Program-made: the position numbers and the translations under genes | Notes under the pieces: generated by a model | Told to the model about the DNA's origin: nothing | The model's input: the letters and a program-made list of their open reading frames with translations, nothing else | The model's database searches: none | In this document: one piece after another, positions 1 through 34,926 of the stretch | Numbering within the stretch: position 1 is the stretch's first letter | Layout: each line of letters starts with the position of its first letter | Virus record (IMG/VR): IMGVR_UViG_3300020215_000876 | Coordinates: 1-50,390 of that record | DNA length: 50,390 nucleotides | Reading direction: 5' to 3' (one strand) | Source: a virus

Positions 1-594
1 TCAGCCATGACGTTTTACTCCAGCGGTGGCCTCGGCCTCGCTATTCGTGAGCCGTTCGGTGAGTTGCGTCCGCGCGCGATGCAGTCGCGAGCGCACCGTC
101 CCGACCGGTATGTTCAAGATCCGCGACGCATCGTCGTAGGTCAACCCCTGCAAATCACACAAGATCAGCACCTCTCTGTATCTTGACGAGAGCCGGCGGA
201 TGAATCGTCGAACACGTGCGACCGTTTCAGACTGCATCATGGCATTCGACGGGTCATCGATGATCAGATCGCGCTCTCGTGGTTCGTCCAGCGTCACGAA
301 CCGCCGATCCTTGCGAAGATGCCGCCGGCTCAGGTTGCGCGCAATCGCAAACAGGTAAGTGGCCAGCGACCCGCGCTCCGGATCGAAACGCCGCAGCTCA
401 CGCAACAACGCGAGGAACGTTTCCTGCGTGATGTCCTCCGCCGCGGCCACCGAGCCGGTCATGGCGCGCGCGAACCGGAACACCGGCGCGTGGTGTCGCT
501 GATAGATCTCGCGGAACGCGTCCCGCCGGCCGGCAATCGCGTGTCGGACGAGAGCGTCGTCCGCGATTGCCGTGCCATCGATGATGTCCGTCAT
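1..594 (-). CDS. ECF-type RNA polymerase sigma factor
   Basis: A 197-residue protein with the two-domain layout of extracytoplasmic-function sigma factors. Region 2 (about residues 20-95) contains the ITQETFLALLREL and YLFAIARNL motifs that bind core polymerase and the -10 element. Region 4 (about 130-185) has the YREVLILCDLQGLTYDDAS helix-turn-helix for the -35 element. I chose the ATG at 594 because region 2 begins soon after it. The stop overlaps a possible ATG (minus strand, 8-6), so a co-transcribed gene, often an anti-sigma factor, probably follows outside the window. This is host DNA left of the prophage. Confidence 0.9.
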   Translation of the reverse strand: MTDIIDGTAIADDALVRHAIAGRRDAFREIYQRHHAPVFRFARAMTGSVAAAEDITQETFLALLRELRRFDPERGSLATYLFAIARNLSRRHLRKDRRFVTLDEPRERDLIIDDPSNAMMQSETVARVRRFIRRLSSRYREVLILCDLQGLTYDDASRILNIPVGTVRSRLHRARTQLTERLTNSEAEATAGVKRHG

Positions 595-656
595 CGATCG
601 ATCGACGACCAGCGCAAAGTTGCCGGCTTTCCCTGTGGCCACGTGCACAGTTGGAC

Positions 657-686
657 TGCGCCACCGGCGCGTTGGCCGGTGACGCA
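657..686. terminator. Hairpin between two leftward host genes
   Basis: An inverted repeat with arms 657-668 and 675-686 (11 of 12 pairs, one C-A mismatch) and a GCGTTG loop. It lies just downstream of the small exported-protein gene on the minus strand. There is no T-run, so factor-independent termination is uncertain. Confidence 0.4.
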
Positions 687-694
687 GACCGTGT

Positions 695-919
695 TCAGCC
701 TTTCTTCCCCTTCGTGCCGCCGCCGTTCGGCTTCTGTCCGCCGCCGCGCAGGCCGGGTGTGCCGTCAGGCTTCTGTCCTTGCGGCGGCTGCGCGCCCGGC
801 TTGACCTTGATCGGCTTGGTCGCTCCTGGCGGCGGCGCCTGCGACCGCGTCTGCGCCAGCACGATACTCGGCATGGCCAGCGCCAGCACACACACGCCGG
901 CAACAAGTGCTCTCTTCAT
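695..919 (-). CDS. Small exported Pro/Gly/Lys-rich protein
   Basis: A 74-residue protein starting at the ATG at 919, which has a GGAG ribosome-binding site upstream. The first ~22 residues form a signal peptide: MKR, a hydrophobic stretch (ALVAGVCVLALAMPSIV), then an LAQ cleavage-like site. The rest is low complexity, rich in proline, glycine, glutamine and lysine, ending GTKGKKG, and is probably disordered in the periplasm or envelope. No enzymatic motif is visible. It lies between the sigma factor and the tRNA, in host DNA. Confidence 0.6.
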   Translation of the reverse strand: MKRALVAGVCVLALAMPSIVLAQTRSQAPPPGATKPIKVKPGAQPPQGQKPDGTPGLRGGGQKPNGGGTKGKKG

Positions 920-1073
920 CACTCGGGTCTCCTCTCGTTGCGCCATCGGCGCCCAATGCGTCGACGTCGCGTTCACTGGGGATTGCCAGCAGCGGCGAGA
1001 GAAGTTCCGTTTTTTTGTGGAGTCGGTGTGCGGCGGGGCAGTTCACGCGGGCGGAGACGCGTAGACCGTATGC

Positions 1074-1079
1074 TAGAAT
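1074..1079 (+). promoter_or_regulatory. Extended -10 element of the tRNA-Glu promoter
   Basis: TGCTAGAAT (1071-1079) matches an extended -10 box 21 bases before the tRNA. No convincing -35 box is visible. Confidence 0.45.
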
Positions 1080-1099
1080 CGATTGTTTCCCGCCTCTGT

Positions 1100-1175
1100 G
1101 TCCCCGTCGTCCAGAGGCCTAGGACGTGGCCCTTTCAAGGCTAAAACACGGGTTCGAATCCCGTCGGGGACGCCA
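1100..1175 (+). tRNA. tRNA-Glu (anticodon TTC)
   Basis: A full cloverleaf can be drawn. The acceptor arms GTCCCCG (1100-1106) and CGGGGAC (1165-1171) pair perfectly. The anticodon loop is CTTTCAA, giving anticodon TTC. The T arm is ACGGG-TTCGAAT-CCCGT (1148-1164). The discriminator base is G1172, and CCA is encoded at 1173-1175. The phage recombinase gene ends inside the 3' half on the other strand, so this tRNA is the likely integration target. Confidence 0.95.
1141..1175. other. Probable left attachment site (tRNA-Glu 3' half)
   Basis: Host genes end and the integrase begins at the 3' half of tRNA-Glu, where the integrase reading frame terminates. This is the expected place for the crossover core. 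The matching copy at the other end is not present in the window, so the core cannot be delimited. Confidence 0.5.
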
Positions 1176-2802
1176 ACGCCTTAGGTGCGAGAGCGTTAAT
1201 CAAAATGCCGCTAGCCGTCAGCGGCAGGCGCACGTCATACGTGCCACGCGCCTCTGGCGTAACAACAATTTTGGCAGACAACACGCCCTCAAGAATCGGC
1301 TTCGCCGCGGTCGGATTCGCGGTGAGCTCGTGCCGCCAATACTGGACTCGTTCGCGCACCAGTCGCTCGATCTCGGCGATGGTCCGATCCGGTGCGGTGG
1401 CGTCCATCAGCCTTGTCAGCGCATCGCGCTGGGACTTGATCGCTTTGAGACGCGTTACCACCGCCGGCAGATCACCCACGCCAGCCACTTGCAGGTCGAC
1501 TAGGCGTGCCGCCTCGATGTCGAGCGCCTTCAGCGTCAGCGCGGCGGTCTCCGTCGCTTGATCGCGCGTGGTGGCGGCCTCGTGCAGCGTTTGCGTGGCG
1601 AGATGGATCGCCATTTCCACGACGGCAGGCGCGAGCAGCCGATCGCGGATCGCGTTCAACACCAGCTCATTTAGTGGCGCCAGCGGCGCCTCGGTGTTAT
1701 TGGTGCACACGCTCTTGCCGCGCGTCATGTAGTTCCAGCAGGCCAAGCCCGGCACGCGACCGCGACCCTTGCGGCTATTTGTGCGCACCACCAGCGACCC
1801 GTGACACTGACCGCACTCGACGAATCCAGTCAGCAAATATTTCGACGGTTTCGCGACGGGGCGACCATGGCGCGCGCCCCCGGTGGCGCCGAGATATGCC
1901 GTCCTCCGGCGCGCGAGGCTGGCATGGGCCGCCTGCCATGCGTCGTCAGACACAATGCGCAGATGATCCGCCGGCTGACGGATCCATTCCGACTCAGCGC
2001 GTTGCCGCTGCCGTTTGCGGCCCCAGTCATCTCGTTTCTTGGATTGATTCCAAACAATGACGCCGCGGTAGAGCTCGCGATACAGAACCTCGCGCACCGT
2101 CGATGGGGTCCAACCTCTAGGACGCCCCAGTTGCGGGCGTGGGGAAGGCGTGAGGGCGTCATTCAATCGGACGGCGATTGCGCGTAGACCGAGACCAGCG
2201 TTCGCAAGTTCGAAGACGCGCCGCACGATCGCGGCCTCCGGCTCGTTGATGCGCCGCTCGACATGCGAGCGCTGCCCTGTGGGCAGCGTAATCGTGATGT
2301 TGTCGTAACCAAAGACGCGGCCGCCGGTCACGTGCCCTGCCTTGGCTTTGCGAGAGAGGGCGTCATAGGTCCGCTGCCTAGCGCGCTCGCGCTCGAGTTC
2401 GTCAGCGAACGCCGCGACGGACATCAAAAGCTTGTCGGTCGGCCCTTGCAGTAACCGCTCGCGGTCTTCGAGATAGAAGAAGACGCGCACGCCGGCGGTG
2501 ACGATCTGCTTCAAGGCATACGCGGTCTCAATGGCTTCACGACCCAGTCGCGATTCCTCGGACATGATCAGCGCATCGAAAAGGGGCCGAGGCGACAGCG
2601 CATTCATCAGCCGGATGAAGCCCGGGCGTTTCGCGAATTCTGCCCCGGATACCTCATCGTGGAACACGCAGTCCTCAACGACGACCCAGCCCTTGCGCGC
2701 AGCGTAGGCACGCGCCTGCTCGATCTGGCGAGTACACGACTTCTGTTCTTCCGCGACGCTCTCCTGCGATGTTGACTTGCGGGCGTAGATGGCAGCACGC
2801 AT
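1141..2802 (-). CDS. Large serine recombinase (phage integrase)
   Basis: A 553-residue large serine recombinase that would catalyse integration and excision. The resolvase domain (about 1-155) opens with YARKS, where Ser10 is the nucleophile, and continues with the SEESRLGR and DELERERARQRT motifs. The recombinase domain (about 165-275) includes GYDN and an RVFELANAGLGLRAIA helix. A zinc ribbon follows (CGQCHGSL then ACWNYMTRGKSVC), then a coiled region. The last nine codons, SPTGFEPVF, are read from the antisense of tRNA-Glu, so the C-terminus is supplied by the target site and may change on excision. It is transcribed towards the host flank, typical of an integrase at a prophage end. Confidence 0.93.
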   Translation of the reverse strand: MRAAIYARKSTSQESVAEEQKSCTRQIEQARAYAARKGWVVVEDCVFHDEVSGAEFAKRPGFIRLMNALSPRPLFDALIMSEESRLGREAIETAYALKQIVTAGVRVFFYLEDRERLLQGPTDKLLMSVAAFADELERERARQRTYDALSRKAKAGHVTGGRVFGYDNITITLPTGQRSHVERRINEPEAAIVRRVFELANAGLGLRAIAVRLNDALTPSPRPQLGRPRGWTPSTVREVLYRELYRGVIVWNQSKKRDDWGRKRQRQRAESEWIRQPADHLRIVSDDAWQAAHASLARRRTAYLGATGGARHGRPVAKPSKYLLTGFVECGQCHGSLVVRTNSRKGRGRVPGLACWNYMTRGKSVCTNNTEAPLAPLNELVLNAIRDRLLAPAVVEMAIHLATQTLHEAATTRDQATETAALTLKALDIEAARLVDLQVAGVGDLPAVVTRLKAIKSQRDALTRLMDATAPDRTIAEIERLVRERVQYWRHELTANPTAAKPILEGVLSAKIVVTPEARGTYDVRLPLTASGILINALAPKALASPTGFEPVF

Positions 2803-7866: not shown

Positions 7867-8178
7867 ATGTCTGACCCTCGTGAAGTCCTGCGCCGCAAGC
7901 TGGCGGAACGGTACGCACCGATCGTCGCCGAGTTGGCCTTGAAGGTCGACAAACCCAACCCGGAGATGACGCTGGCAGACCTGCGGTGTGACCGCGCCGC
8001 GGACATCTATCTCGAGAAGGCGATGGACTTTCTGCTCGGCCCCTCGCGCCAGAGTCGGATCAATGAGGTGCAGGCGGCGCAGGCCCACGAACGCGCGTTA
8101 CGGGAGGACGAGGACGAAACCGTCAAGCGGCAGGCGCGTCAGGATGTCATCAAGCACCGCTCCGGGAGGACGCACTGA
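7867..8178 (+). CDS. Hypothetical protein upstream of Bet
   Basis: A 103-residue helical, charged protein (DPREVLRRKLAERYAPIVAE, then EDEDETVKRQARQ). The ATG at 7867 has AGAGGT at good spacing; the frame also opens at 7801, adding 22 low-complexity residues. It overlaps the Bet start by one base, so it is probably translated in step with the recombination genes. Function unknown. Confidence 0.7.
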   Translation: MSDPREVLRRKLAERYAPIVAELALKVDKPNPEMTLADLRCDRAADIYLEKAMDFLLGPSRQSRINEVQAAQAHERALREDEDETVKRQARQDVIKHRSGRTH

Positions 8179-9245
8179 TGTCTACCGTCGCTGAACAACC
8201 GGCCGCCACCACACCGAAGGATCAGCAGCTCCAGCAGCGGGCGCAAGTTGTCGACGCGCTGACGAAGCGCGGCATCGACGAATACCAGTGGCGCACGCTG
8301 ATGAACAGCCTGTTCCCCGGCGCGCGGTCCGAGTCCGTGCTGATGGTGATCGACTACTGCCACGCGCGGAAGCTCGACCCCATGAAGAAGCCGTGCCACA
8401 TCGTCCCGATGAGGGTGAAAGACCAGAAGACCGGCGAGTGGGAATGGCGCGATGTCGTGATGCCTGGCATCTACGAATACCGCACCACGGCGATGCGCAC
8501 CGGGAATTACCTGGGGCACTCCAAACCGGAGTACGGCCCGACGGTGGAGTGCTTTGGCGTCACCGCGCCTGAATGGTGCGAGATGACGATGTATCGACGC
8601 GCCACCAACGGCGATCGGATCGAATTCCCCGTACGCGTCTACTTCCGTGAGGCGTGCGCGACGAAGTTCGACAAGGAAGCCAAGAAAGACGTCGCCAACG
8701 ATCGGTGGAGCAAAGCGCCGATCCAAATGCTGACCAAAACGACAGAAGCCGCAGGCCTCCGCGAAGCCTTTCCAGACGAATTCGGTGGCGAAACGACCGC
8801 CGAAGAAATGGATGGCCGCGGTCACGACGTCGTCGACGTGCAGCCCGTCCCGGCCATCCAGGTGCCCCAGCGCCGTGCTGACGACGTCGCCCAGCCGTCG
8901 TCAGCACCGGTGATCGATGCCGAGCCGGTCAGCGAACCGACGCCGGCGCCGGCCCCGCAGGCCGCGTCGACGATCACGATCACCAAGGTCGAGAAGATGG
9001 AGTCGTCGAAGACGCGCGGCAAGACCGACGAGCAAGTCGCGAAGCTCGGCGCCCGGCGCGTCTTCTATTTCCTCGTCACGGATTCCACCGGCCGCGTCTG
9101 CTCGACCTGGTCGGAGTCGCTCTATCTGCAGTGCGGCAAGTTCGCCGACGACAAGACCCCGGTCGACATTACCGCGGAAACGGTCAGCGGGCAGCCGTGG
9201 CCCAAGCTGGTCGAGGTCAACGCCGCCAAGGGAGACGCGCAGTGA
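8178..9245 (+). CDS. bet: Phage recombination protein Bet/RecT (ssDNA annealing)
   Basis: A 355-residue protein whose first ~215 residues match the Bet/RecT annealase family: YCHARKLDPMKKPCHIVPM is the family hallmark, followed by MPGIYEYRTTAMRTG and the late WSKAPIQMLTKTTEAAGLREAFPD motif (cited in parts). Such proteins anneal complementary single strands during phage recombination. Residues ~216-260 form a Pro/Ala linker, and residues ~260-355 are an extra beta-rich domain (RRVFYFLVTDSTGRVCSTW) beyond the usual family length. The gene ends in a GTGA overlap with the exonuclease, giving the standard annealase-exonuclease pair. Confidence 0.92.
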   Translation: MSTVAEQPAATTPKDQQLQQRAQVVDALTKRGIDEYQWRTLMNSLFPGARSESVLMVIDYCHARKLDPMKKPCHIVPMRVKDQKTGEWEWRDVVMPGIYEYRTTAMRTGNYLGHSKPEYGPTVECFGVTAPEWCEMTMYRRATNGDRIEFPVRVYFREACATKFDKEAKKDVANDRWSKAPIQMLTKTTEAAGLREAFPDEFGGETTAEEMDGRGHDVVDVQPVPAIQVPQRRADDVAQPSSAPVIDAEPVSEPTPAPAPQAASTITITKVEKMESSKTRGKTDEQVAKLGARRVFYFLVTDSTGRVCSTWSESLYLQCGKFADDKTPVDITAETVSGQPWPKLVEVNAAKGDAQ

Positions 9246-9895
9246 TTGCGGCGATCGCCACGGACGGCCTGGCGTTCGACAAGGCGAGCCACACCTACAC
9301 CCTGCACGGTGTGGTGTTACCCAGCGTGACGCAAGTCATCCGGGACAACCGGCTGTCGTCGGACTTCGCCTTCGTGCGCGCCGCCGACATGGAAATCGCG
9401 CGCCAGCTCGGTCAAGCGGTGCATGTCGCCACGCACTATCACGATGAAGGCACGCTGGATGAGCGCACGGTCGACCCGGTCGTGATGCCGTATCTGCTCG
9501 CCTGGCGGCGGTTCGTGGCCGATCGGCGCGTGCGGTTCGTCGCGCTCGAGCAGCGCGTCGCCGACCCGATCTACCGGTTCTGCGGCACGGTCGATCGCAT
9601 CGCGGTCCTCGAAGACAACCCGACGCTGGGCGAGATCGTCGTCGATCTGAAGACCGGGAACCCCGCCGCGGCCGGGGCGAACTATCAAACCGCCGCGTAT
9701 GCGCACCTGGTCCAGAGCCTGCCCTGTGTCACGCGCGTCGGTGCGCGGTGGTCGGTGCAGCTGCATCCCGAGCGCGCCGTGCCCTACTCGGTGACGCCGT
9801 ACGCGAAGTTGACCGACTGGCGCATTTTCCGCGCCGCCCTGGAATTAACCCACGAACGTGCATCGCTGGGCGTGTCCTGGCGCGAGGCTGCGTAA
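9242..9895 (+). CDS. PD-(D/E)XK exonuclease (RecB/Cas4-like), Bet partner
   Basis: A 217-residue nuclease. The catalytic core is visible: CGTVDRI supplies the first acid, GEIVVDLKTG the D-x-K pair, and YQTAAYAHL the Q-x3-Y motif typical of RecB-family nucleases. The GTG start overlaps the Bet stop by four bases. It would resect double-stranded ends so that Bet can anneal the strands. The N-terminal part (SHTYTLHGVVLPSVTQVI) is common in phage exonucleases of this type. Confidence 0.85.
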   Translation: MIAAIATDGLAFDKASHTYTLHGVVLPSVTQVIRDNRLSSDFAFVRAADMEIARQLGQAVHVATHYHDEGTLDERTVDPVVMPYLLAWRRFVADRRVRFVALEQRVADPIYRFCGTVDRIAVLEDNPTLGEIVVDLKTGNPAAAGANYQTAAYAHLVQSLPCVTRVGARWSVQLHPERAVPYSVTPYAKLTDWRIFRAALELTHERASLGVSWREAA

Positions 9896-10743
9896 TGGCT
9901 GCTACCGAGATCATGGACCCCGTCGCCGATCCGTTGCCGGACCCGGTGCCAGATGTCGAAATTCTCGACGCGGAGCCGGTGCCGGTGGACGAGCCCGAGG
10001 AACAGTCGCTGGCTCGCACCTCCACCGACCTGGTGACGCGCGCGAAGTCCTTCGTCATCACAACGGCCGCACAGTTCGAGCTCGCCGGCGAGATGCTGAC
10101 GACGCTGAAGGACCAGAAGCGCCGGATCGTCGACTTCTTCGAAGCCGACATTCAGCGTGCGCACGCCGCATGGAAGGGTCTCACCACCAAGCGCGCCAGC
10201 TTCGTCGACCCGCTCGACGAGGCGATTTCGAACCTGAGCGCCAGATACGGGACGTTCGCGAAGGAAGCGCGCGAGGCTGCCGAGCGCGAACGCCGGCGAC
10301 TCGAAAAGGAAGCGCACGAGCGCGAGCAGGCCCGGCTGAAAGAGGAAGCCGACCGGCTCGCCGCCGAGGCCAAAGCGAAGGCGGACGCCGCGCTCGAGGC
10401 GAAGACACGCGAAGAAGCGCTCGCGCTCGAGGCCCAAGCCGAAGACCTGCAGAAGGCTGCCGAGTACACGAAGATCGAAGCCGCCACTGTCCCGGCGCCG
10501 GTCCTGCCGGCCCGCCCTGTCGTGACGCCACCGAAGGGCACCACCGTGAAAGCGAACTGGTCGCACGAGGTCACCGACCTGACGGCCCTGGTGAAAGCCG
10601 TCGCGGCCGGCACCGTCAGCATTCAGGCCATCTGCGCCAACGACACGTATCTCCGCCAGCGCGCCAAGGCCGACAAGGACACGGTGCAGATCCCTGGTGT
10701 GCGGTTCTACGACGCCGTCAGCGTGAGTCACCGGAGGAAGTGA
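9895..10743 (+). CDS. Coiled-coil phage protein of the recombination operon
   Basis: A 282-residue protein with an acidic, Pro-rich N-terminus, a helical segment (VTRAKSFVITTAAQFELAGE), and a long charged coiled coil at about 120-200 rich in EARE/RLEKEA repeats. A small C-terminal domain follows (VTDLTALVKAVAAGT). The ATG overlaps the exonuclease TAA (TAATG). Similar coiled-coil proteins accompany annealase and exonuclease genes in many phages; a helper role in DNA end processing is inference. Confidence 0.7.
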   Translation: MAATEIMDPVADPLPDPVPDVEILDAEPVPVDEPEEQSLARTSTDLVTRAKSFVITTAAQFELAGEMLTTLKDQKRRIVDFFEADIQRAHAAWKGLTTKRASFVDPLDEAISNLSARYGTFAKEAREAAERERRRLEKEAHEREQARLKEEADRLAAEAKAKADAALEAKTREEALALEAQAEDLQKAAEYTKIEAATVPAPVLPARPVVTPPKGTTVKANWSHEVTDLTALVKAVAAGTVSIQAICANDTYLRQRAKADKDTVQIPGVRFYDAVSVSHRRK

Positions 10744-11120
10744 TGCGCCGCGGTCACTACCTGTCGAACCAGATCGCCCGCTTCCGCGCGCCGCGGCCGA
10801 TCGAGACGCCCGACACCGACGCCGCCCAGGTCTACCGCCAGCAATGGCGGAAGCGTGACGGCAGCATGGTCCGGACGTTCGACGTGCTCGCCCTCGACGA
10901 CAAGATGGCCCAGGAGTTGGGCGGCATTCGGCTGGCGGAGCGGTATCGGCAGAGTCCGGTGGACTGGCAGCTCGTGTCGAGCATCGTGCGTGAGCACTCG
11001 ACCTCGAGCGTGATCGCCGTCCTGAGCACTGAAGACCCCGATGAAACCAAGGTGCGCGAAGAAGGTTTCTGCCGGCTGACGGCTGGCGATCCCAATCCGT
11101 TCGAGGTCGAACTGTCGTGA
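10743..11120 (+). CDS. Hypothetical protein
   Basis: A 125-residue protein starting in a TGATG overlap. It contains RQQWRKRDGSMVRTFDVLAL and a C-terminal REEGFCRLTAGDPNPFEVEL. No known motif is seen. It is tightly packed in the recombination operon, so it probably acts in early DNA metabolism. Confidence 0.65.
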   Translation: MRRGHYLSNQIARFRAPRPIETPDTDAAQVYRQQWRKRDGSMVRTFDVLALDDKMAQELGGIRLAERYRQSPVDWQLVSSIVREHSTSSVIAVLSTEDPDETKVREEGFCRLTAGDPNPFEVELS

Positions 11121-11593
11121 TCCGCCGTCGCTCCGTGAAGCGCCCGAAGCTCGGCATCAACTACGCCGCGATTGCGGCCGCCGGTGGGATCGGGAAAGGC
11201 CCATCGACCCCGCTCGTCAAGGGCTGGAAGAAGGCGGCCTTCGAGAAGGCGCTGGCAGAGGCTTACGAAATCGTCAACCGACGCGATCGCAATCGGTCCC
11301 GCGTCACCGGCGTGAACCTGTTCCCGAGCACGGACAACCTCAAGGCCCTGCGGGAGCACAACCATCTGGGCAAGCGGTCGACGCACCCATCGGAGGAAAC
11401 CAACCCCGCGAACATCTTCCTGGTCTCGCACTACGAGCACCAGTTCCTGACGTCCGGTGAGTTGGTGACGCACGGCACCGACGCCAATCGTGAATTGAAG
11501 TTCTCGTGGAACAGGCACTTAGTTAAAGCCGGCAAGGAACCGTTCCGCATTCCCGCGGTGAACCTGTGGAAGCCACGAAAGGCGGTGGCGTAG
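11117..11593 (+). CDS. Hypothetical protein, weakly HNH-like
   Basis: A 158-residue basic protein starting with GTG in a four-base overlap. The segment LREHNHLGKRSTHPSEETNP with IFLVSHYEHQFL loosely resembles an HNH core with His and Asn residues, but the DxHH signature is absent. The C-terminal part (NRELKFSWNRHLVKAGK) is strongly basic and could bind nucleic acid. Function is not established. Confidence 0.6.
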   Translation: MIRRRSVKRPKLGINYAAIAAAGGIGKGPSTPLVKGWKKAAFEKALAEAYEIVNRRDRNRSRVTGVNLFPSTDNLKALREHNHLGKRSTHPSEETNPANIFLVSHYEHQFLTSGELVTHGTDANRELKFSWNRHLVKAGKEPFRIPAVNLWKPRKAVA

Positions 11594-12171
11594 TGCGCGC
11601 CGAAGCCATTCCATTTGAAACGCCGTGGCTGGCAACGTACAGCGCCGAGAAGAACGCACTCGGCCTGCACGACAAGGCCGGGTATTCGACCTGGTTGCCG
11701 ACGCAGTTCAAGGACGGCGACCGCGTAATGATCATCGCCCTGCCGTTGGCGAGCGATGCGCCCCATTTCCACGAAGCGGTCTACCGCTACTGGCGAGGGT
11801 GTGTGCTGCCCATCCTTGCGGAAGAACTCGGCGAGCCCAATCTGGACGTCGCGCACGACATCGTCGTGACGCAGTTGTCCGGTGTCCAAGCGGCGCCGAA
11901 GAAGAAGCGCGGGCTGAAGTTGAAGCGGAAGTCGACGGCGATGGACTCGATGCCGTGCGCCGAACTCTGCGAGCTGATCGACCGGGCGATCGTCTGGGCG
12001 ACGCGTGATCTCGGCCTGGTCATCCCCATGGCCGATCCGGGTTGGCGATGGAAGCGCGAACAAGAACAGCGGCGCGGTGCCGGATGTGCATCCGGCCGAT
12101 CGTTGTCATCCGTGGTGGGTGTCGCCGGCGACGGTGTGGAACCGTCGGCCGCGCCGAGTGGAGGTCGGTGA
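11593..12171 (+). CDS. Hypothetical protein
   Basis: A 192-residue protein. The start could be GTG at 11593 (TAGTG overlap, my choice) or GTG at 11566. An N-terminal domain (GDRVMIIALPLASDAPHFHE) is followed by a basic linker (KKKRGLKLKRK) and a helical segment (CAELCELIDRAIVWATRD) with VIPMADPGWRWKRE. I do not recognise the family. The last ~35 residues are low complexity. Confidence 0.6.
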   Translation: MRAEAIPFETPWLATYSAEKNALGLHDKAGYSTWLPTQFKDGDRVMIIALPLASDAPHFHEAVYRYWRGCVLPILAEELGEPNLDVAHDIVVTQLSGVQAAPKKKRGLKLKRKSTAMDSMPCAELCELIDRAIVWATRDLGLVIPMADPGWRWKREQEQRRGAGCASGRSLSSVVGVAGDGVEPSAAPSGGR

Positions 12172-12407
12172 TGAAAAGGGATAACGGCGGCCAGGCGTTT
12201 CCTCGCGCCGGATTCTTCGGCGTCTACAAAGACGGCAGTTCCGAATCTGAAGGCAGCACTGACGGCATGACGCTGCGCGATTACTTCGCCGCGAAGGCGA
12301 TGCAAGGGCTGATTGCCAGCAACGATGAAGGGGCCGGCGATCGCTTGACCGAGATTCCAGGCTACGCCTACGCCATCGCCGACGCGATGCTGGCGGCGCG
12401 CAAATAG
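12171..12407 (+). CDS. Small phage protein with MTLRDYFAAKAMQ motif
   Basis: A 78-residue protein built like the common phage proteins that open with a GGQAFP-type motif and carry GMTLRDYFAAKAMQG in the middle. Despite being widespread in phages, this type has no assigned function that I know of. It starts in a TGATG overlap and ends before a strong AGGAGG site for the next micro-gene. Confidence 0.75.
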   Translation: MKRDNGGQAFPRAGFFGVYKDGSSESEGSTDGMTLRDYFAAKAMQGLIASNDEGAGDRLTEIPGYAYAIADAMLAARK

Positions 12408-12428
12408 TAAGCCCGAACAGGAGGACAG

Positions 12429-12554
12429 ATGCCCGAAGACGTGAAGGAACCCGAACCAAACGAACCGCCGCCGGAACAGCCACCGGTGGCGCAAGGTGAC
12501 GGCGACGCCGGCACCGAGGAACCGCCGCCCGACATCGATCCGCTGGCGGAGTAA
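12429..12554 (+). CDS. Acidic Pro/Glu-rich 41-residue peptide
   Basis: The frame starts at an ATG behind AGGAGGA, the best ribosome-binding site in this area, which is the main reason to call it. The peptide is nearly all Pro, Glu, Asp, Gly and Ala (PEPNEPPPEQPP, PPPDIDPLAE) and would be disordered and strongly acidic. It lies immediately before the structured non-coding region. Confidence 0.55.
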   Translation: MPEDVKEPEPNEPPPEQPPVAQGDGDAGTEEPPPDIDPLAE

Positions 12555-12649
12555 AGACCGGACGCTTATCGAAATCGAATCGGTGCGCCGTTGACGCGGC
12601 TCGTCAGCACCGAGGAGCGAATGTGCGGCTACATGCGGTGAAAGGCCCC

Positions 12650-13086
12650 GCGCACTACAAGTCGGGCAACCTCAAAAACGCTGACCACGTTCGTAAAGAT
12701 TGCCGGACAGCCGGGAGAGACCGGCACTCGTTGAACACGAACGACCGGAGCGGCGGCGTGGAAGGACACGCAGGTGTCGATTACGTAGCAGACCAAGCGC
12801 TACGCGATGTCTTCAGCCTCTTGCCCCCTTGAACTACCCGTAGGGAGCAAGGAAGGACGGCGGACCGCTGATGACTGGGACTCAGCAGCCGGTATCAAGC
12901 CCGGCCCGTTTCGGTCGTTCGTGTTGAACGAGTAACAACAGGTTTCAGCGAGTTCGTCAGGGCCAAACAACCCGAAGACTTCTATCGCGCGGAACGCGCC
13001 GAGGAACCTTAGGGATCTGAGTTGGGCGAAGACCTGACGGACTCGTTGAACAGGTAGCTAAGCCGTAGCACGCGCCCGACGTGTGC
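12650..13086 (+). ncRNA. Candidate large structured RNA (unrecognised class)
   Basis: The ~530-nt gap between 12555 and 13105 has no credible gene but dense, nested complementarity. A closing stem pairs 12650-12655 with 13081-13086, and 12661-12667 with 13074-13080. A long helix pairs 12726-12753 with 12906-12933 (27 of 28 pairs including G-U, one G-G mismatch). Inside it are hairpins 12756-12771 (or 12765-12778), 12784-12804, 12820-12851, 12867-12886 and 12888-12905. A second 18-bp helix pairs 12944-12961 with 13033-13050, extended by 12962-12971 with 13021-13027, capped by hairpin 12987-12999. Further hairpins are 12710-12725 and 13057-13069. The + strand is assumed from the flanking genes. 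Size and style recall the ornate phage RNAs GOLLD and ROOL, but I recognise no conserved element of either. Confidence 0.65.
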
Positions 13087-13105
13087 CCGTTTGAGAAGAC
13101 TGAAC

Positions 13106-13882
13106 ATGCCAACGCATCGTGTGATTGAAAAAACTGCGGGAACCGGTGAACGCACCGGAAGCCTCTCCCATCTCGGCTTTCGGGTTTGGATGCAATACCA
13201 GCTCTCTGCCGACGATTACGGGGTATGTCCGGCCGAAGCCGAGAAGTTACGTGGGGACAACCCGGCGCTACACGCCGAACCCAACAAGAAGATTCAGGAG
13301 CAGATAGAGCGCCTGATTGAGGTGAAGTTGTGCGGCTCGTTCATGGACGGCAAACGACGGTATCTGTTCCAGCGCGACTGGCAGACCTACCAGCGGATCA
13401 AGCACCCGTCGAAGACCGCGTTGCCGCCAGTGCCTCCAGAAGAATTAGAGAAGTGTTGCGAAAAAACTAAAGAACTTTTTCTCAACTTTCATCCAAAAAT
13501 TGCGGGAGATTTTCGCCCTCACGCGAACGCTATCGCTAACGCCAGCGCAATCGCAACCGCTGAGCATCCGCATCCGGTGAAGGAATTTCTCACCGAGCAT
13601 GAGCGGCTGTTCCGCGCCAAATACCACGCGGCCCCAGCGAAATACACCGGCAAAGACGCCAAACACGCCAAGGACATCACCGAGCGGCACCAGTTCGAGC
13701 CGGCGATCGCCATCCTGCGGCAGTTCTTCGCCAGCACTGACCCGTTCATCGCGAAGTCGGGTCATGGGCTGGGTGTCTTGGCTGCCGGTGCGGTGCAGAA
13801 CCGCGTGATCGCGGAGTTGTCCGGGAATGGTGCCGCCGGCGACGGCTTCGATGGTCTGCGGGAGTTCGTGCGCCATGGCTGA
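13106..13882 (+). CDS. Phage replication initiation-like protein
   Basis: A 258-residue protein from the ATG at 13106 (GAGAAG upstream); a TTG at 13091 is possible. The N-terminal half (SHLGFRVWMQYQLSADDYG, then KIQEQIERLIEVKLCG and RRYLFQRDWQTYQRI) has the winged-helix look of phage replication organisers. A variable linker carries Ala/Asn repeats, and a C-terminal helical domain follows (KYTGKDAKHAKDITERHQF). Position before a zinc-binding small protein and RusA supports replication initiation. The start lies only 20 nt after the candidate structured RNA, which could influence its translation. Confidence 0.7.
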   Translation: MPTHRVIEKTAGTGERTGSLSHLGFRVWMQYQLSADDYGVCPAEAEKLRGDNPALHAEPNKKIQEQIERLIEVKLCGSFMDGKRRYLFQRDWQTYQRIKHPSKTALPPVPPEELEKCCEKTKELFLNFHPKIAGDFRPHANAIANASAIATAEHPHPVKEFLTEHERLFRAKYHAAPAKYTGKDAKHAKDITERHQFEPAIAILRQFFASTDPFIAKSGHGLGVLAAGAVQNRVIAELSGNGAAGDGFDGLREFVRHG

Positions 13883-14312
13883 TCAGGTGTTCTGGAACCG
13901 CGACAACGAAGCGGATCGCAAGAGATTCGCGCTGATCCTGGCGCCGCTCGTTGGTGCCAGCCGAACCAAGTCGTTCACGCGCCATGAAGGCACGGCCTAC
14001 ATCCTGTCGATGCAGGACGTCCCGCCGGCCATTCTCGAAGAAGCCGTCGCGTCCCTGGTGCGCCAGGGCGTGACGTGGATGCCGAAGCCGGGCGACCTGA
14101 AAAAAGAGTGTGCGTCGGTGATGGCCGCGAAACGCAAGGCCGCCGCCGCGTTGCATTTGGAGAGTTGCGAGCACTCCTCCCACTTCATCGACGTCGACGG
14201 TCGCATGGAGCGCTGCCCCTGTTGGAAACGTGCGCAGCAGGCGATGGTTGAGGTCGGTCAAGCGATCGCACTACCACCGTCTCGGGAAGACGCCGCGGAG
14301 TTGCTGCCGTGA
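13875..14312 (+). CDS. Replication-associated protein with Cys/His cluster
   Basis: A 145-residue protein. After a helical N-terminal domain (NEADRKRFALILAPLVGASR, then GVTWMPKPGDLKKEC), a Cys/His-rich segment (ESCEHSSHF then ERCPCWKR) could bind zinc. It overlaps the replication gene by 8 nt. In this position many phages carry a helicase loader or an accessory replication factor; I can only infer that role. Confidence 0.65.
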   Translation: MADQVFWNRDNEADRKRFALILAPLVGASRTKSFTRHEGTAYILSMQDVPPAILEEAVASLVRQGVTWMPKPGDLKKECASVMAAKRKAAAALHLESCEHSSHFIDVDGRMERCPCWKRAQQAMVEVGQAIALPPSREDAAELLP

Positions 14313-14545
14313 CGCCCTACACCATCGGCGAACCGGTGACCGAATTACCGCCTGTTCTACGCCGGTCGGACGAACAGGACTGGTCGTTAGCTTATCGCGC
14401 GGCGCAGAAGGCGGACGGTCGATGGGTGCCCGTCCAGTGTGGTGATCGCGTCGAAGCTCGGAAACTCAAGGACGTCTCGAAAAAACAGCCCGGTCTTGAA
14501 GCCGTGATGCGCGGATCGATCTGTTTCCTCCGGGTGCGGGTATGA
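14309..14545 (+). CDS. Hypothetical protein
   Basis: A 78-residue protein beginning with GTG in a four-base overlap and ending in an ATGA overlap with the next gene. It is charged and has no recognisable motif (SDEQDWSLAYRAAQKADGR). The coupled layout supports it being real. Confidence 0.6.
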   Translation: MTPYTIGEPVTELPPVLRRSDEQDWSLAYRAAQKADGRWVPVQCGDRVEARKLKDVSKKQPGLEAVMRGSICFLRVRV

Positions 14546-14940
14546 AGCAACCGGCGTTGGACTTCACCACGGTGCAGCCCTTCGATCCGACAGTGATGGC
14601 CGTTGCGCCCTCGAAGGATCGGGAGGCGCGGGAGACGTCCGCTCTCGCAGCGATCGAGAACACCGCGACGGGTCGACGGGCCAAACAAAACGCCACACTA
14701 CTGCAGCTGATTCGGGCTGCCGGTGAACTCGGCATTTCGGACATCGAGTTGGCGCGTGCAACGGGTTATCCCCGGTCTTCGATCTGCGCGCGCCGCGGCT
14801 GGGATTTGCGAACCCTGATCGAGCCAGCCGCGCATCGCTATCAAGACCCCGTCAGTAAGCGCACCTATACCCGCTGGAAGCTGGCGGCGACCAGGCCGGA
14901 CGAGCGTCAGGGCGACTCGGACACTGAGGCTGATTTATGA
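14542..14940 (+). CDS. Winged-helix DNA-binding protein
   Basis: A 132-residue protein with a probable winged helix at about 50-100: NATLLQLIRAAGELGISDIE, then LARATGYPRSSICARRGWD as turn and recognition helix. Such small HTH proteins sit beside RusA in many phage replication blocks. It overlaps RusA by four bases. Its DNA target is unknown. Confidence 0.68.
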   Translation: MKQPALDFTTVQPFDPTVMAVAPSKDREARETSALAAIENTATGRRAKQNATLLQLIRAAGELGISDIELARATGYPRSSICARRGWDLRTLIEPAAHRYQDPVSKRTYTRWKLAATRPDERQGDSDTEADL

Positions 14941-15389
14941 ACCGGCCGTCGATCGCGTTCACCGTGCACGGCAAAGCGGTAGCCAAAGGCTCGATCCGAG
15001 CATTCCAGCCCAAAGGCATGACGCGGCCGGTGCTGACCAGTACCTCGAAGGGGCTGAAGGCGTGGGAGTCCGACATTCGCGGCGAGCTGCAAGTCGTGAT
15101 GGCGAAGGCACCACAGAGCGACCTGCTGGCGTTATTCGATGCGCCGGTTGCCGTCGGCCTGCGCTTCCACATTGCGAAGCCGAGGAGACCGAAGAACAAA
15201 CACTACCCGACAGCCAAACCGGACATCGACAAACTCGCGCGCGCCGCGGTCGATGCGCTGTCCTCGGTGGTGTTTCGTGATGACGCGCAAGTGGTAGCGC
15301 TGCAGGTCCGCAAGGTCTACGCGGAGGCTGGCGCGAAGGTGGAAATCGTAATCGAGAGCTGGGCAGAAAGGACGTTGGTCAATGGATGA
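14937..15389 (+). CDS. rusA: RusA-family Holliday junction resolvase
   Basis: A 150-residue protein with the RusA signature: KPDIDKLARAAVDALS followed by VVFRDDAQVV, supplying the conserved aspartates that bind metal, and FHIAKPRRPKNKH upstream. It cuts four-way junctions made during phage recombination and replication. The N-terminus (IAFTVHGKAVAKGSIR) also fits. Length is normal for the family. The next gene overlaps by 8 nt. Confidence 0.93.
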   Translation: MNRPSIAFTVHGKAVAKGSIRAFQPKGMTRPVLTSTSKGLKAWESDIRGELQVVMAKAPQSDLLALFDAPVAVGLRFHIAKPRRPKNKHYPTAKPDIDKLARAAVDALSSVVFRDDAQVVALQVRKVYAEAGAKVEIVIESWAERTLVNG

Positions 15390-16479
15390 CGTGTTGGAAA
15401 TGCAGCCGGACAGCGAGCAAGTAAACGACGACACTGAGCCCGTCGCCGAGGAATTCAGCCCGTCGGACTTGACCGAGGACCAGGTGAAAGCCGGCTTGGC
15501 CAATCTCTCCGGCGGGATTGCAACCGCGCAAGATGTCGAGAACGCCGCGCGCGCCGAAGAAGGCTTGCCGCCGCTCGAATCTGCAGGGTTGCTTGATTTT
15601 GGCCCATTCAATCCAGATGCCGCGCTGAAAGCGATCTTCGACAAGAGCGTCGAAGTCGATCTGTTGCGATCGTCATGGCAGCGTAAAGCCGAAGACGCGA
15701 AGGACGCGAAGAAGGAGTACGAGATCGGCAGTTCTGCGCTGCTGAATCTGATCAACACGTTCAAGCTCCGCCGTCAACACGCGTTGAATCCGTCGCAGCC
15801 ATACCTGAAGGACGTGAGCGGCGACGCGCCGGCGCCGTCGCTGTCGACGTCACGATGCCCATGGGAACGCGATCACCCCGGGCAGTCGTGCCCGATCTGC
15901 ACGGCCGCGCAAGCGAAAGACTTGGTGCCGGCGCTCGAATCTGAAGTGCATCCCGAGCACGAAGGTCACGCCGCGGTGGCGGAGTCCGCGCGCGTCAAGA
16001 ACGTCCTGGAACCGCTGGCCGAGAAGTTGCGAGCCGTGAACGTTCACGCGACGGCGCCAGATCTGCAGCCCTTGTCGACGGACGACTTGAACGCGCTGAT
16101 CGCCTACGCGGACGAGCCGACGCCCATGCCGCCGCAATTGATCGCGCGTTGCTGCCGCGCGGCAGAGCCCGGGACACTACTGCAGGTCTGCCAGAACTGC
16201 GATCGCGTCTTGGTCGAGTTCGTCGGCGAGGCGACGGCGTATCCGGTTGACGCATTGGTCGGCTTCGAGTGCGGCGCATATCGGCCGACCGAAGTCGCGC
16301 CGGCCTCGCGCATTGAGGAACCGCCGACGCAGTCAACTGAACCGGTGCGCACCATCAAGCCACGCGGATCCAAGAAGACCGCCCGCAAACAGCCCGAGCA
16401 GGAGCACGCCAAGCAGGTTGAATCCGGTCGCAAGGCTACGACGAAGAAAGCCGCCAAGCGCGGAAAGGGCCGGCGGTAG
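15382..16479 (+). CDS. Hypothetical protein with zinc-knuckle pairs and basic tail
   Basis: A 365-residue protein of no family I recognise. An acidic N-terminus leads to a helical middle (SSWQRKAEDAKDAKKEYEIG). CPWERDHPGQSCPIC and a later CCRAA...CQNCDRV pair look like zinc-binding turns. The last ~45 residues are very Lys/Arg/Thr-rich (KATTKKAAKRGKGRR), like a histone tail, and could hold DNA. Its position between RusA and the methyltransferases suggests a DNA-related job. Confidence 0.65.
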   Translation: MDDVLEMQPDSEQVNDDTEPVAEEFSPSDLTEDQVKAGLANLSGGIATAQDVENAARAEEGLPPLESAGLLDFGPFNPDAALKAIFDKSVEVDLLRSSWQRKAEDAKDAKKEYEIGSSALLNLINTFKLRRQHALNPSQPYLKDVSGDAPAPSLSTSRCPWERDHPGQSCPICTAAQAKDLVPALESEVHPEHEGHAAVAESARVKNVLEPLAEKLRAVNVHATAPDLQPLSTDDLNALIAYADEPTPMPPQLIARCCRAAEPGTLLQVCQNCDRVLVEFVGEATAYPVDALVGFECGAYRPTEVAPASRIEEPPTQSTEPVRTIKPRGSKKTARKQPEQEHAKQVESGRKATTKKAAKRGKGRR

Positions 16480-16683
16480 ATGGAGAACTGCAGGTATTGC
16501 GGCGAGCCGGCCGAGGGCAACTTCTCGATCCATCGTGACGGGTTCGGTGTCGGTCCGGAAGTGCCGCTGTGCGATGCCTGCGGCGGCCATGAGGAGCCGT
16601 CAGCCTTCGACATCTGGGAGCAGATCGCGCAACCCAGCGATCGCGAGTTCGCGCACAAACCAGTCGGTGAGGTCGAATCGTGA
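16480..16683 (+). CDS. Small zinc-ribbon protein
   Basis: A 67-residue protein with two Cys pairs, CRYCGEPA and CDACGGHE, making a zinc ribbon. It starts directly after the previous stop and overlaps the methyltransferase GTG by four bases. It may act as a small adaptor; no function is known. Confidence 0.7.
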   Translation: MENCRYCGEPAEGNFSIHRDGFGVGPEVPLCDACGGHEEPSAFDIWEQIAQPSDREFAHKPVGEVES

Positions 16684-17945
16684 TTCACCACGGCGATCTG
16701 TTCACCGTGCTACCGGCGGTTCCGGCTGATTACTACGACGCCTGTGTCACCGATCCGCCCTATGGCATCGGCTTCATGGGGAAAGAGTGGGACACGTTCA
16801 AGCCGGGCGCCGTGAAGCAGGCGCACCGTCTGGTGAAGGCCGAGCCGATTGTCTCGGTCAACCCGAACATCAACGGTCGGCGGAGGTCGCCAGCAATTTC
16901 TCCAAGCCAAGTCGAATATGACTACACCGTCGAAGGATTGCGCGGTTTTCAACACTGGACCGAGCAATGGGCGCGCCAGGTGTTCAGGGTGCTCAAACCT
17001 GGCGCCTACATCGTTGTGTGCTGCGCGCCGCGGTCCTATCACCGCATGGCATGCGGGCTCGAGGACGCCGGCTTCGTCATCCGAGACAAGTTCTCGTGGC
17101 TGTTCGGCTCAGGGTTCCCCAAGAATCTGAATCTCGGAGACGGGCGCGGCACGGCGCTGAAACCAGCGCACGAGCCGATCGCGCTGGCGTGGAAGCCGTT
17201 CAAGGGCAGCATCACCGCTAACGTCGCGAAGCACGGCACAGGGGCGCTGAACATCGACGCGTGCCGGTTGGAACCCGGCGATGACGGTGATCGGACGGGC
17301 GAACCCAGCGCCGAACGAGGCTACACGGATAGCGGCTCGACAGACTTCGCACCGACACCGGGACCGCGCGGCGGTTCACCGCTGGGCCGCTGGCCCGCCA
17401 ACGTCATCATTGACGACGTCGCCGCGGCCGCGATCGATGAACAGACCGGCGAACTGGTCAGCGGCGCCAACCCGACCCGGCGCAGCGCGGATAAGTTCCG
17501 CGACGCGTACGGTGCCTTTAAGGGTCAGGAAGAGTGCGACGCCGCCCGCGGGCTCGACATTGGCGGTGCGTCACGCTTCTACTACGTAGCCAAGCCCTCG
17601 CGCGAAGAGCGCGACATGGGCTGCTACGACCTGACGCCGCGTCAGCGAGACGAATCGCGCAAGGAAGGCAATCCCGGCGGCGATAACCCGCGCAATCGTG
17701 GGCTGCAACCGCGCGGCAACTTTCACCCCACCGTTAAGCCGATCGCGCTGATGCGCTATCTGGTGCGCCTGGTCACGCCGCCAGGCGGCCGCGTGCTCGA
17801 TCCGTTCGGTGGCAGCGGCACTACGGCGTGCGCATGCGTCTACGAACAGCGCGAGTGGGACGTCATCGAGAAGGAAGCCGAATACATCGAGTTGATCAAG
17901 CGGCGCGTTCATGCTGTCGCGCCGCTGTTTACGGAGGCGGTCTAA
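16680..17945 (+). CDS. DNA N6/N4 methyltransferase (beta class)
   Basis: A 421-residue DNA methylase. Motif IV, VTDPPYGIGF, is near the N-terminus (~residue 22), and motif I, LDPFGGSGTT, is near the C-terminus (~375), the order of beta-class N-4/N-6 methylases. YHRMACGLEDAGFVIRD and FHPTVKPIALMRYLVR are further family segments. The region from ~150 to 320 would hold the target-recognition part. It modifies phage DNA, most likely to evade host restriction. No cognate restriction enzyme is seen nearby. Confidence 0.9.
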   Translation: MIHHGDLFTVLPAVPADYYDACVTDPPYGIGFMGKEWDTFKPGAVKQAHRLVKAEPIVSVNPNINGRRRSPAISPSQVEYDYTVEGLRGFQHWTEQWARQVFRVLKPGAYIVVCCAPRSYHRMACGLEDAGFVIRDKFSWLFGSGFPKNLNLGDGRGTALKPAHEPIALAWKPFKGSITANVAKHGTGALNIDACRLEPGDDGDRTGEPSAERGYTDSGSTDFAPTPGPRGGSPLGRWPANVIIDDVAAAAIDEQTGELVSGANPTRRSADKFRDAYGAFKGQEECDAARGLDIGGASRFYYVAKPSREERDMGCYDLTPRQRDESRKEGNPGGDNPRNRGLQPRGNFHPTVKPIALMRYLVRLVTPPGGRVLDPFGGSGTTACACVYEQREWDVIEKEAEYIELIKRRVHAVAPLFTEAV

Positions 17946-17983
17946 CCATGCGTGCCCTCTACCGCTGGAAGGCGGCGGCATGA

Positions 17984-19141
17984 ATGGCGGCCTACTACAA
18001 CGAGTTCGATCGCTATGCCGCGGCCTGGCTGCGCGAACTCATCAAGGCGGGGTTGATCGCTGATGGTGAAGTCGATGAGCGCTCAATTGTCGATGTTCGA
18101 GCCGACGACATCCGAGGCTTCACCCAATGCCACTTCTTCGCCGGCATTGGTGGATGGTCGTACGCCCTCCGACTCTCTGGTTGGGCCGATGAGCGGCACG
18201 TCTGGACCGGCAGTTGTCCCTGTCAACCGTTTAGCGCCGCGGGGAAAGGCGATGGCGCCGCCGATTCGCGCCACCTTTGGCCTACGTGGTTCGAGCTCAT
18301 ACGCGAGTGCCGCCCTCCAGTCGTCTTTGGCGAACAGGTTGCGAGCGCGGATGGACTTGGATGGCTCGATCGTGTTTCGACTGACATGGAAGCAACGGGT
18401 TACGCCGTCGCATCGGCGGATCTGTGCGCTGCGAGCGTCGGCGCATTCCACATTCGACAGCGGCTGTACTTCGTGGCCGACACCGAACGCGGGGCCACAG
18501 AACGACGGCGATTCGACCTGGCGGCAGCGGCGCGAAGTGCTCAAAGCGCAACACCGGAACGGCAACGGGTTCGGCCTGACGCTGGGGATGGCCGCGCAGT
18601 TATCGGCCTGGCCGACTCCGAATACGCCGAGCGGCGGCAGGTCCGTGTCCATCGAGAAGATGGACGCGACGGGGCGGATGGTAGACGGTCGCAAGCATAC
18701 GGCGAGCCTGGAACACGCGGCGAAGTTTGCAGCGTGGCGATCGCCGAACGCCTCAGATCAAAAGATGCGCTGCACCAGCGAGGCGATGTATCAGCGGAGA
18801 CGGCAAGCCAATCGGCAAGTGACGCTGGAGGAGCAAGCCTGTCTCGCGGCGTGGCAGTCACCGACGAGCGGGGATGCGAAGTCTCGGACGTACCAGTACG
18901 ACAACCACGACAAGACGAAGCCGCGGTTATCGAACGAGGGGCAGGTTTCTGGCGCACCGCAGATTGGATTCCCTGCGCCGACGGCAAATGGCGGCCAGTT
19001 GAACCCGGCACATTCCCGCTGGCTCATGGGATACCCGGCCGTGTGGGACGACTGCGCGGTTATGGCAATGCCATCGTCCCGCAGGTCGCCCAGGCGTTCA
19101 TCGAAGCCTATCTCGACGCCCGAGGACAAGTAGATGCGTGA
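17984..19141 (+). CDS. DNA (cytosine-5) methyltransferase
   Basis: A 385-residue C5 methylase. Motif I is FAGIGGWSYALRLSGW, the motif IV catalytic Cys lies in SCPCQPFSAAGKG, motif VI is GEQVASADG (usual ENV replaced by EQV), motif VIII is RQRLYFV, and motif X is GYGNAIVPQVAQAF. An N-terminal helix (FDRYAAAWLRELIKAG) precedes motif I. The target-recognition region (~165-320) is Arg/Glu/Ala-rich and contains LADS-type repeats. The same DNA is open in the +1 frame and encodes a second protein-like sequence, so the composition of this region may reflect dual coding. Confidence 0.92.
   Translation: MAAYYNEFDRYAAAWLRELIKAGLIADGEVDERSIVDVRADDIRGFTQCHFFAGIGGWSYALRLSGWADERHVWTGSCPCQPFSAAGKGDGAADSRHLWPTWFELIRECRPPVVFGEQVASADGLGWLDRVSTDMEATGYAVASADLCAASVGAFHIRQRLYFVADTERGATERRRFDLAAAARSAQSATPERQRVRPDAGDGRAVIGLADSEYAERRQVRVHREDGRDGADGRRSQAYGEPGTRGEVCSVAIAERLRSKDALHQRGDVSAETASQSASDAGGASLSRGVAVTDERGCEVSDVPVRQPRQDEAAVIERGAGFWRTADWIPCADGKWRPVEPGTFPLAHGIPGRVGRLRGYGNAIVPQVAQAFIEAYLDARGQVDA
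18075..19133 (+). CDS. WPTP-repeat protein nested in +1 frame of the C5 methylase
   Basis: A 352-residue frame (ATG 18075; ATG 18063 also possible) lying wholly inside the methylase gene. It begins MSAQLSMFEPTTSEASP and carries MDLDGSIVFRLTWKQRVTPS, ICALRASAHSTFDSG, repeated WPTPN/WRSPN/WQSPT motifs and a C-terminal LNPAHSRWLMGYP. I recognise this as a recurrent sequence type in phage genomes rather than a random shadow. Each WPTP in this frame is the same DNA as LADS or a similar string in the methylase frame. Its function is unknown. Confidence 0.65.
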   Translation: MSAQLSMFEPTTSEASPNATSSPALVDGRTPSDSLVGPMSGTSGPAVVPVNRLAPRGKAMAPPIRATFGLRGSSSYASAALQSSLANRLRARMDLDGSIVFRLTWKQRVTPSHRRICALRASAHSTFDSGCTSWPTPNAGPQNDGDSTWRQRREVLKAQHRNGNGFGLTLGMAAQLSAWPTPNTPSGGRSVSIEKMDATGRMVDGRKHTASLEHAAKFAAWRSPNASDQKMRCTSEAMYQRRRQANRQVTLEEQACLAAWQSPTSGDAKSRTYQYDNHDKTKPRLSNEGQVSGAPQIGFPAPTANGGQLNPAHSRWLMGYPAVWDDCAVMAMPSSRRSPRRSSKPISTPEDK

Positions 19142-34697: not shown

Positions 34698-34886
34698 CTG
34701 CGCGGTCCTGACGGTCTGACGACCGGTCCATCCGCGCAGTAACACAGGGCTCCGCGAGTTCCGATGAACGCGCGGCCTGTTCGGGTGCTTCACGCGTTCA
34801 CGTGTGCCGGGCACTCACCGAGACGAAAGTCTCGCTGAGCCGGTCCGATTCGAACGCGAGAAGCCTCGAATAGGTCGCGCGTTTTT
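34698..34886 (+). promoter_or_regulatory. Structured leader of the capsid gene
   Basis: The 248-nt gap before the capsid gene holds three stem-loops: CTGCGCGG/CCGCGCAG (34698-34739) with an inner GGTC-TGAC-GACC; CGAGAC-GAAA-GTCTCG (34819-34834) extended by CTCA/TGAG; and AACGCG/CGCGTT (34853-34883) followed by TTTTT, an intrinsic-terminator shape. The last may reduce readthrough into, or separate, the capsid transcript. No clear promoter is visible. Confidence 0.5.
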
Positions 34887-34926
34887 CATTGGGGTGAGTG
34901 GGGTCGAGTGGCAGGAGCCGATCACC

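What the first reader, a model, noticed from the sequence alone, without database searches (positions are those of the whole stretch)
12650..13086. Candidate new large structured RNA in a phage early operon
A ~437-nt non-coding stretch is almost fully accounted for by nested helices: a bulged 13-bp closing stem (12650-12667 with 13074-13086), a 28-bp helix with one mismatch (12726-12753 with 12906-12933), an 18-bp helix (12944-12961 with 13033-13050) and at least eight hairpins. Two long helices with distant arms, nested without conflict inside a closing stem, are hard to get by chance. ACTCGTTGAACA also recurs at 12726 and 13041, so one strand (12922-12933) could pair with either copy, a possible switch. 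Known large phage RNAs (GOLLD, ROOL) are comparable in size and setting, but I recognise none of their elements. It lies between an acidic 41-residue ORF and the replication gene.
Basis: partly seen in the sequence, partly recalled or inferred. Interest (0 to 1): 0.9.

Follow-up and report, generated by a model that had tools for sequence, protein, structure and literature searches.

The report
Orphan paired hairpins before phage replication gene
A prophage, probably of an acidobacterium, carries a 551-base stretch without an evident gene in front of its replication gene; it holds two real long hairpin-forming repeats, but nothing beyond those two shows that it is the large, elaborate RNA first suggested, and no relative could be found to test it.

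Summary
The two long helices are real and not chance: A, 12726-12753/12906-12933 (25 Watson-Crick, 2 G-U, 1 mismatch), and B, 12944-12961/13033-13050 (16 Watson-Crick, 2 G-U). None of 400 shuffles of the gap contains a helix as good as either. They sit in a 551-nt apparently non-coding gap (12555-13105), the only gap above 40 nt in an early operon (8178-19141) whose genes otherwise overlap or abut.

With the helix arms excluded, the interiors and flanks fold no better than shuffles. The closing stem has zero predicted probability. The proposed switch costs 25 kcal/mol. Strand asymmetry is not significant.

No homologue was found in Rfam, phage or plasmid records, selected viral contigs, or hundreds of acidobacterial genomes. 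The nearest phages with a related replication gene (58 and 54% identity) have open reading frames running up to that gene and no such element. Covariation could therefore not be tested.

My best reading is a cis-acting intercistronic mRNA element, two long hairpins that process, insulate or control transcription into the replication gene. A stand-alone large RNA is not excluded but unsupported. A second, stronger hairpin lies at 34760-34890, before the major capsid gene.

The parts
12555..13105 (+). 551-nt apparently non-coding gap in the early operon that holds the element
   Evidence: Flanking genes 12429-12554 and 13106-13882; the other gaps in 8178-19141 are -28..+38 nt; codon scores of ORFs inside <=0.05; no Pfam hits
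12726..12753 (+). Helix A, 5' arm (ACTCGTTGAACACGAACGACCGGAGCGG)
   Evidence: pairing probability 0.87-1.0 except the G.G mismatch
12906..12933 (+). Helix A, 3' arm
   Evidence: score 23 against shuffle maximum 16.5
12944..12961 (+). Helix B, 5' arm (TTCAGCGAGTTCGTCAGG)
   Evidence: pairing probability 0.99-1.0 over 16 of 18 pairs
13033..13050 (+). Helix B, 3' arm
   Evidence: score 17 against shuffle maximum 16.5
12726..12737 (+). 12-mer motif copy 1, ACTCGTTGAACA
   Evidence: Exact repeat of 13041-13052
12922..12933 (-). Motif copy 2, inverted, one mismatch (ACTCGTTCAACA)
12943..12954 (-). Motif copy 3, inverted, degenerate (ACTCGCTGAA...), in the 5' arm of helix B
   Evidence: Read directly from the sequence; pairs with copy 4 in helix B
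13041..13052 (+). Motif copy 4, ACTCGTTGAACA
12429..12554 (+). Upstream 41-residue acidic ORF with a GGAGG ribosome-binding site
   Evidence: Upstream bases AACAGGAGGACAG and codon score 0.51
13106..13882 (+). Downstream replication-initiation-like gene
   Evidence: PHROG 2149/1408; relatives at 58 and 54% identity in viral contigs and about 40% in acidobacterial genomes
13440..13560 (+). AT-rich patch plus degenerate GCGAACGC/ATCGC-type repeats inside the replication gene: candidate lambda-O-like origin
   Evidence: GC falls to 0.44 at 13400-13499 against about 0.62 across the window; sequence; function inferred
12623..12832 (+). 69-residue GTG ORF with a GAGGAG upstream, overlapping the 5' part and helix A; doubtful gene
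   Evidence: Codon score -0.01, GC by codon position 0.70/0.45/0.68, no Pfam hit

Best explanation
A cis-acting intercistronic element of the early mRNA. Helices A (28 bp) and B (18 bp) form one after the other as the early operon is transcribed. They act on that mRNA between the recombination genes upstream and the replication gene downstream, most likely as double-stranded sites that RNase III can cut or as stable barriers that set the stability or polarity of the downstream message. A put-like effect on the passing RNA polymerase is the next best form of the same idea. Shown: the gap without evident coding, the two non-chance helices, the shared motif, and the position inside a same-strand gene run. 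Inferred: that the region is transcribed through, that the helices form in RNA, and that they process, insulate or control transcription.
For: The only gap above 40 nt in a tightly overlapping + strand operon contains two helices that exceed every one of 400 shuffles. All four wobble-type positions in the arms are G-U on the + (mRNA) strand and none is A-C, 1 in 16 by chance. Signal is confined to the helices and the loops are unconstrained, as expected of a processing or insulating hairpin rather than an ornate fold. Both helices have pairing probabilities near 1. The same prophage has a second long hairpin (34760-34890, z -9.2) at the start of its major capsid ORF, so long hairpins between genes recur in this phage. 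HK022 put RNAs are a known phage precedent for paired stem-loops with shared sequence acting in cis on an early transcript (PMC9378689).
Against: No expression data. No homologue, hence no covariation. Strand asymmetry in fold energy is not significant (z -1.2). The element is absent from the related phages' replication operons, so it is not an essential part of this operon type. No promoter was found in 12300-13300 and the terminator-like sites are no more than chance. RNase III involvement is inference from helix length only.
Confidence: 0.42

Rival explanations
1. DNA-level element: the four motif copies (orientation + - - +) are binding sites for a replication initiator, repressor or recombinase, and the hairpin potential is a by-product of inverted sites.
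For: Shared 12-mer in four copies. Both strands fold almost equally well (z -5.3 and -4.5). The region adjoins an initiator-like gene. A related phage (L236/L142) shows inverted arrays of an 11-mer, TGACGGGATCT, beside its integrase-like gene, a likely DNA-level precedent.
Against: Complementarity runs well beyond a binding site (28 continuous positions). All four wobbles are G-U on the + strand. The AT-rich patch and repeats that look like an origin are inside the replication gene instead. Motif copies are not at regular iteron spacing.
Confidence: 0.25
2. A stand-alone large structured phage RNA, the first reader's idea (works like GOLLD or ROOL).
For: Apparently non-coding, phage-borne, strong total fold, no match to any known family.
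Against: Excess stability comes only from two inverted repeats. The closing stem and switch are not predicted. No promoter or convincing terminator. No relatives in Rfam, phages, plasmids, the viral loci examined, 193 genomes of one acidobacterial class or 396 genomes spread over the phylum. The nearest tRNA gene lies about 11 kb away.
Confidence: 0.13
3. Remnant of a small mobile element (MITE-like, terminal inverted repeats 12726-12753/12906-12933, or a 327-bp insert bounded by direct 12-mers), with no present function.
For: Present here and absent before the replication gene of relatives. Near-perfect terminal repeats; exact direct 12-mers bound 12726-13052. Interior unstructured.
Against: Only one copy in the prophage record and no copies in any collection searched. 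No target-site duplication is visible at the ends of helix A (sequence). The gap (551 nt) is larger than the repeat-bounded part.
Confidence: 0.15

Closest known systems
Phage intercistronic RNase III processing hairpins (T7 early mRNA type; own knowledge)
   Same: Long near-perfect helices between genes of a phage early operon, loops unconstrained
   Different: Large (152- and 71-nt) interiors; processing not shown; two helices share a 12-mer
HK022 put RNA antiterminators (PMC9378689)
   Same: Two stem-loops, shared sequence, cis position in an early phage transcript
   Different: put RNA is about 70 nt, close to the early promoter and acts on E. coli RNA polymerase; this is over 300 nt, deep in the operon, no promoter found
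GOLLD / ROOL large phage RNAs (PMC12286853)
   Same: Phage or prophage location, apparently non-coding, several hundred nt
   Different: No covariance-model match, not near a tRNA array, no conserved family found, only two helices above chance
Lambda-type phage origins inside or next to the replication gene (own knowledge)
   Same: Repeats next to an initiator gene
   Different: Not AT-rich, no regular iterons; a better origin candidate lies inside the replication gene

Membership tests
GOLLD / ROOL / any Rfam family | Match to the covariance model | tested here: not met
   No hit at gathering threshold at this site; only one chance hit (E 3.1) at permissive threshold over 12550-13150
GOLLD / ROOL / any Rfam family | Elaborate multi-helix fold beyond chance | tested here: not met
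   Interior and flanking segments fold like shuffles
GOLLD / ROOL / any Rfam family | Covarying homologues | not testable with these tools
   No homologue found
GOLLD / ROOL / any Rfam family | Often near tRNA islands | tested here: not met
   ARAGORN finds a tRNA-Glu at 1100 and a doubtful tRNA-Gly at 43243 only
Intercistronic RNase III / mRNA-control hairpin | Long helix lying between co-directional genes | tested here: met
Intercistronic RNase III / mRNA-control hairpin | Transcribed through and cleaved or stabilised in vivo | not testable with these tools
   No transcript data
put-type antiterminator | Two adjacent stem-loops of about 70 nt near an early promoter | tested here: not met
   Two stem-loops but 327 nt (12726-13052), over 4 kb into the operon, no promoter found (description from PMC9378689)
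Phage replication origin | Iterons plus AT-rich unwinding region | tested here: not met
   GC 0.55-0.64 across the gap; the AT-rich patch is inside the replication gene; four motif copies irregularly spaced
MITE or similar mobile element | Terminal inverted repeats with target-site duplication and multiple copies | tested here: not met
   Inverted repeats present, but no duplication visible and no second copy

The most novel reading that the evidence does not exclude
A previously undescribed phage RNA built on two long sister helices that share a 12-mer, acting in trans or as a regulated RNA at the switch from recombination to replication genes, in a phage lineage (probably of Acidobacteriota) with almost no sequenced relatives.
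Probability: 0.15. Interest if true: 0.65.

Novelty: new member of a known kind. Interest (0 to 1): 0.33.

Why it matters
If the helices act in RNA, this would be an early-operon RNA control element in a prophage of what appears to be an acidobacterial host, a phylum with few studied phages, and a second long hairpin at the start of the capsid gene suggests that this phage uses such elements repeatedly. If it is DNA-level or a remnant, the value is a caution: a large fold-energy excess can come wholly from two inverted repeats and does not by itself show an ornate RNA.

Tried and rejected
Homologue searches that led nowhere: blastn of the gap in phages and plasmids. A 17-mer of helix A in viral contigs gave 76 hits, none with further similarity; the best, L073, looks coding. 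Replication protein alone in viral and genome contigs; terminase; p11117; RecT, one relative L080 without the element. DNA search of 193 class genomes gave 7 isolated matches of 22-40 nt, judged chance. Single-sequence covariance models of A and B: in class genomes model A gave only compact hairpins, weak or partial (model B was not run there); nothing convincing in relatives or in 80 loci around the upstream neighbour's family. Phylum sample, 396 genomes. Rejected ideas: coding region, the closing-stem fold and the switch, integron attC or a group II domain V look-alike (ATGCGGTGAAAG at 12633; no Rfam support), origin of replication as first choice.

Full report
What was checked. The window is a 50,390-base virus record, apparently a prophage: a host-like ECF sigma gene and a tRNA-Glu (1100-1175) at the left are followed by a serine integrase whose 3' end overlaps the tRNA. 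The tRNA pattern matches 11 genome contigs, most of them labelled as Acidobacteria or Terriglobia, so the host is probably an acidobacterium; two labels (a Cyanobacteria and an Acidimicrobiia bin) differ. The finding lies in a + strand early operon with RecT, exonuclease-like genes, a replication-initiation-like gene, and genes I call RusA-like and methyltransferase-like from their sequence and position only (not confirmed by a family search). From 8178 to 19141 the genes overlap or are separated by at most 38 nt, except for the 551-nt gap 12555-13105.

The gap is probably non-coding. Codon scores of all ORFs inside are at or below 0.05 against 0.21-0.51 for the three neighbouring genes scored, and none has a Pfam match. 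One 69-residue GTG ORF (12623-12832) has a plausible ribosome-binding site and coding-like GC by position, so it cannot be fully excluded.

Helices. A (12726-12753/12906-12933) and B (12944-12961/13033-13050) are as described. With Watson-Crick +1, G-U +0.5 and mismatch -3 they score 23 and 17; the best helix in each of 400 dinucleotide shuffles of the gap averages 9.8 and never exceeds 16.5. They are not independent: they share the 12-mer ACTCGTTGAACA, present in four exact or near copies arranged + - - +.

Fold energy. The region folds better than shuffles on both strands (437 nt: + z -5.3, - z -4.5) and is the best of 114 sampled windows. Partitioning shows where the excess comes from. A with its arms has z -5.9 and B with its arms -4.4, but A interior +0.3, B interior -0.8, the 5' part -0.4, the 3' part -1.1, and all non-arm sequence joined -1.3 (the same joined sequence on the - strand is -2.6). 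So the additional hairpins are what any sequence of this composition gives. The closing stem has probability zero and costs 5.5 kcal/mol if forced; the alternative pairing of 12922-12933 with 13041-13052 costs about 25 kcal/mol. The strand difference is not significant (z -1.2), though the arms carry four G-U and no A-C on the + strand (1 in 16).

Relatives. Direct searches found none. The replication protein was traced by two routes. Acidobacterial genomes gave about 40% relatives and viral contigs gave L140 (58%) and L141 (54%) plus three weaker ones. L140 also keeps downstream neighbours of the window's operon. In these loci open reading frames lie in place of the gap upstream of the replication gene, and neither blastn, nhmmer nor single-sequence covariance models find the element there or in the wider records. 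Searches of class and phylum genomes gave only short or low-scoring matches judged chance.

Mechanism. The pattern (two long helices with unconstrained interiors between co-directional genes, in an otherwise gapless gene run, wobbles on the mRNA strand) fits a cis-acting intercistronic mRNA element best. RNase III processing or insulation is my first choice and a put-like action second. Both are inference. The main rival is a DNA-level set of binding sites; the origin version of that rival is weakened because the AT-rich patch and repeats lie inside the replication gene. A relative, L142/L236, carries inverted arrays of an 11-mer near an integrase-like gene, which suggests that such arrays can be DNA sites.

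Second element. At 34760-34890, between the head protease gene and the major capsid gene (its longest ORF, from 34804, overlaps the hairpin), a compound hairpin of -82.4 kcal/mol (z -9.2 on +, -6.6 on -) is followed by TTTTT. It has no Rfam or phage match. It is statistically stronger than the finding itself and supports the view that this phage uses long hairpins between genes.

Verdict. Observation partly confirmed; 'new large structured RNA' partly supported at most. The present status is an orphan pair of long inverted repeats whose RNA function is plausible but untested.

Noticed in passing
window 34760-34890 (+): Very stable compound hairpin (MFE -82.4 kcal/mol, z -9.2; - strand z -6.6) followed by TTTTT, just before or overlapping the start of the major capsid ORF 34804-36591; possible terminator, attenuator or processing site.
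   Followed up: partly
window 1-2802: ECF sigma gene, tRNA-Glu 1100-1175 and a serine integrase (1141-2802, -) whose end overlaps the tRNA: looks like the left prophage boundary in a probably acidobacterial host.
   Followed up: partly
window 13440-13560: AT-rich patch followed by degenerate GCGAACGC/ATCGC repeats inside the replication gene: candidate lambda-O-like origin.
   Followed up: partly
window 12621-12641: Six-codon ORF ATG TGC GGC TAC ATG CGG TGA (MCGYMR) with GAGGAG just upstream, overlapping the 69-residue GTG ORF 12623-12832: possible leader peptide ahead of the helices.
   Followed up: no
L236:19500-19794 (phage of locus L142): Inverted arrays of TGACGGGATCT close to a tyrosine-integrase-like gene, likely integrase arm or att sites.
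   Followed up: partly
L100-L117 (acidobacterial genomes): Small replication-initiator family (about 40% identity to the window's protein over its first 104-130 residues) in several copies per genome in G129 and G152, downstream of small HTH-like ORFs: perhaps satellites or cryptic islands.
   Followed up: no
window 43243-43332 (-): ARAGORN calls a tRNA-Gly(acc) that Rfam does not confirm at its gathering threshold; the surrounding 450-nt window is among the better-folding ones.
   Followed up: no
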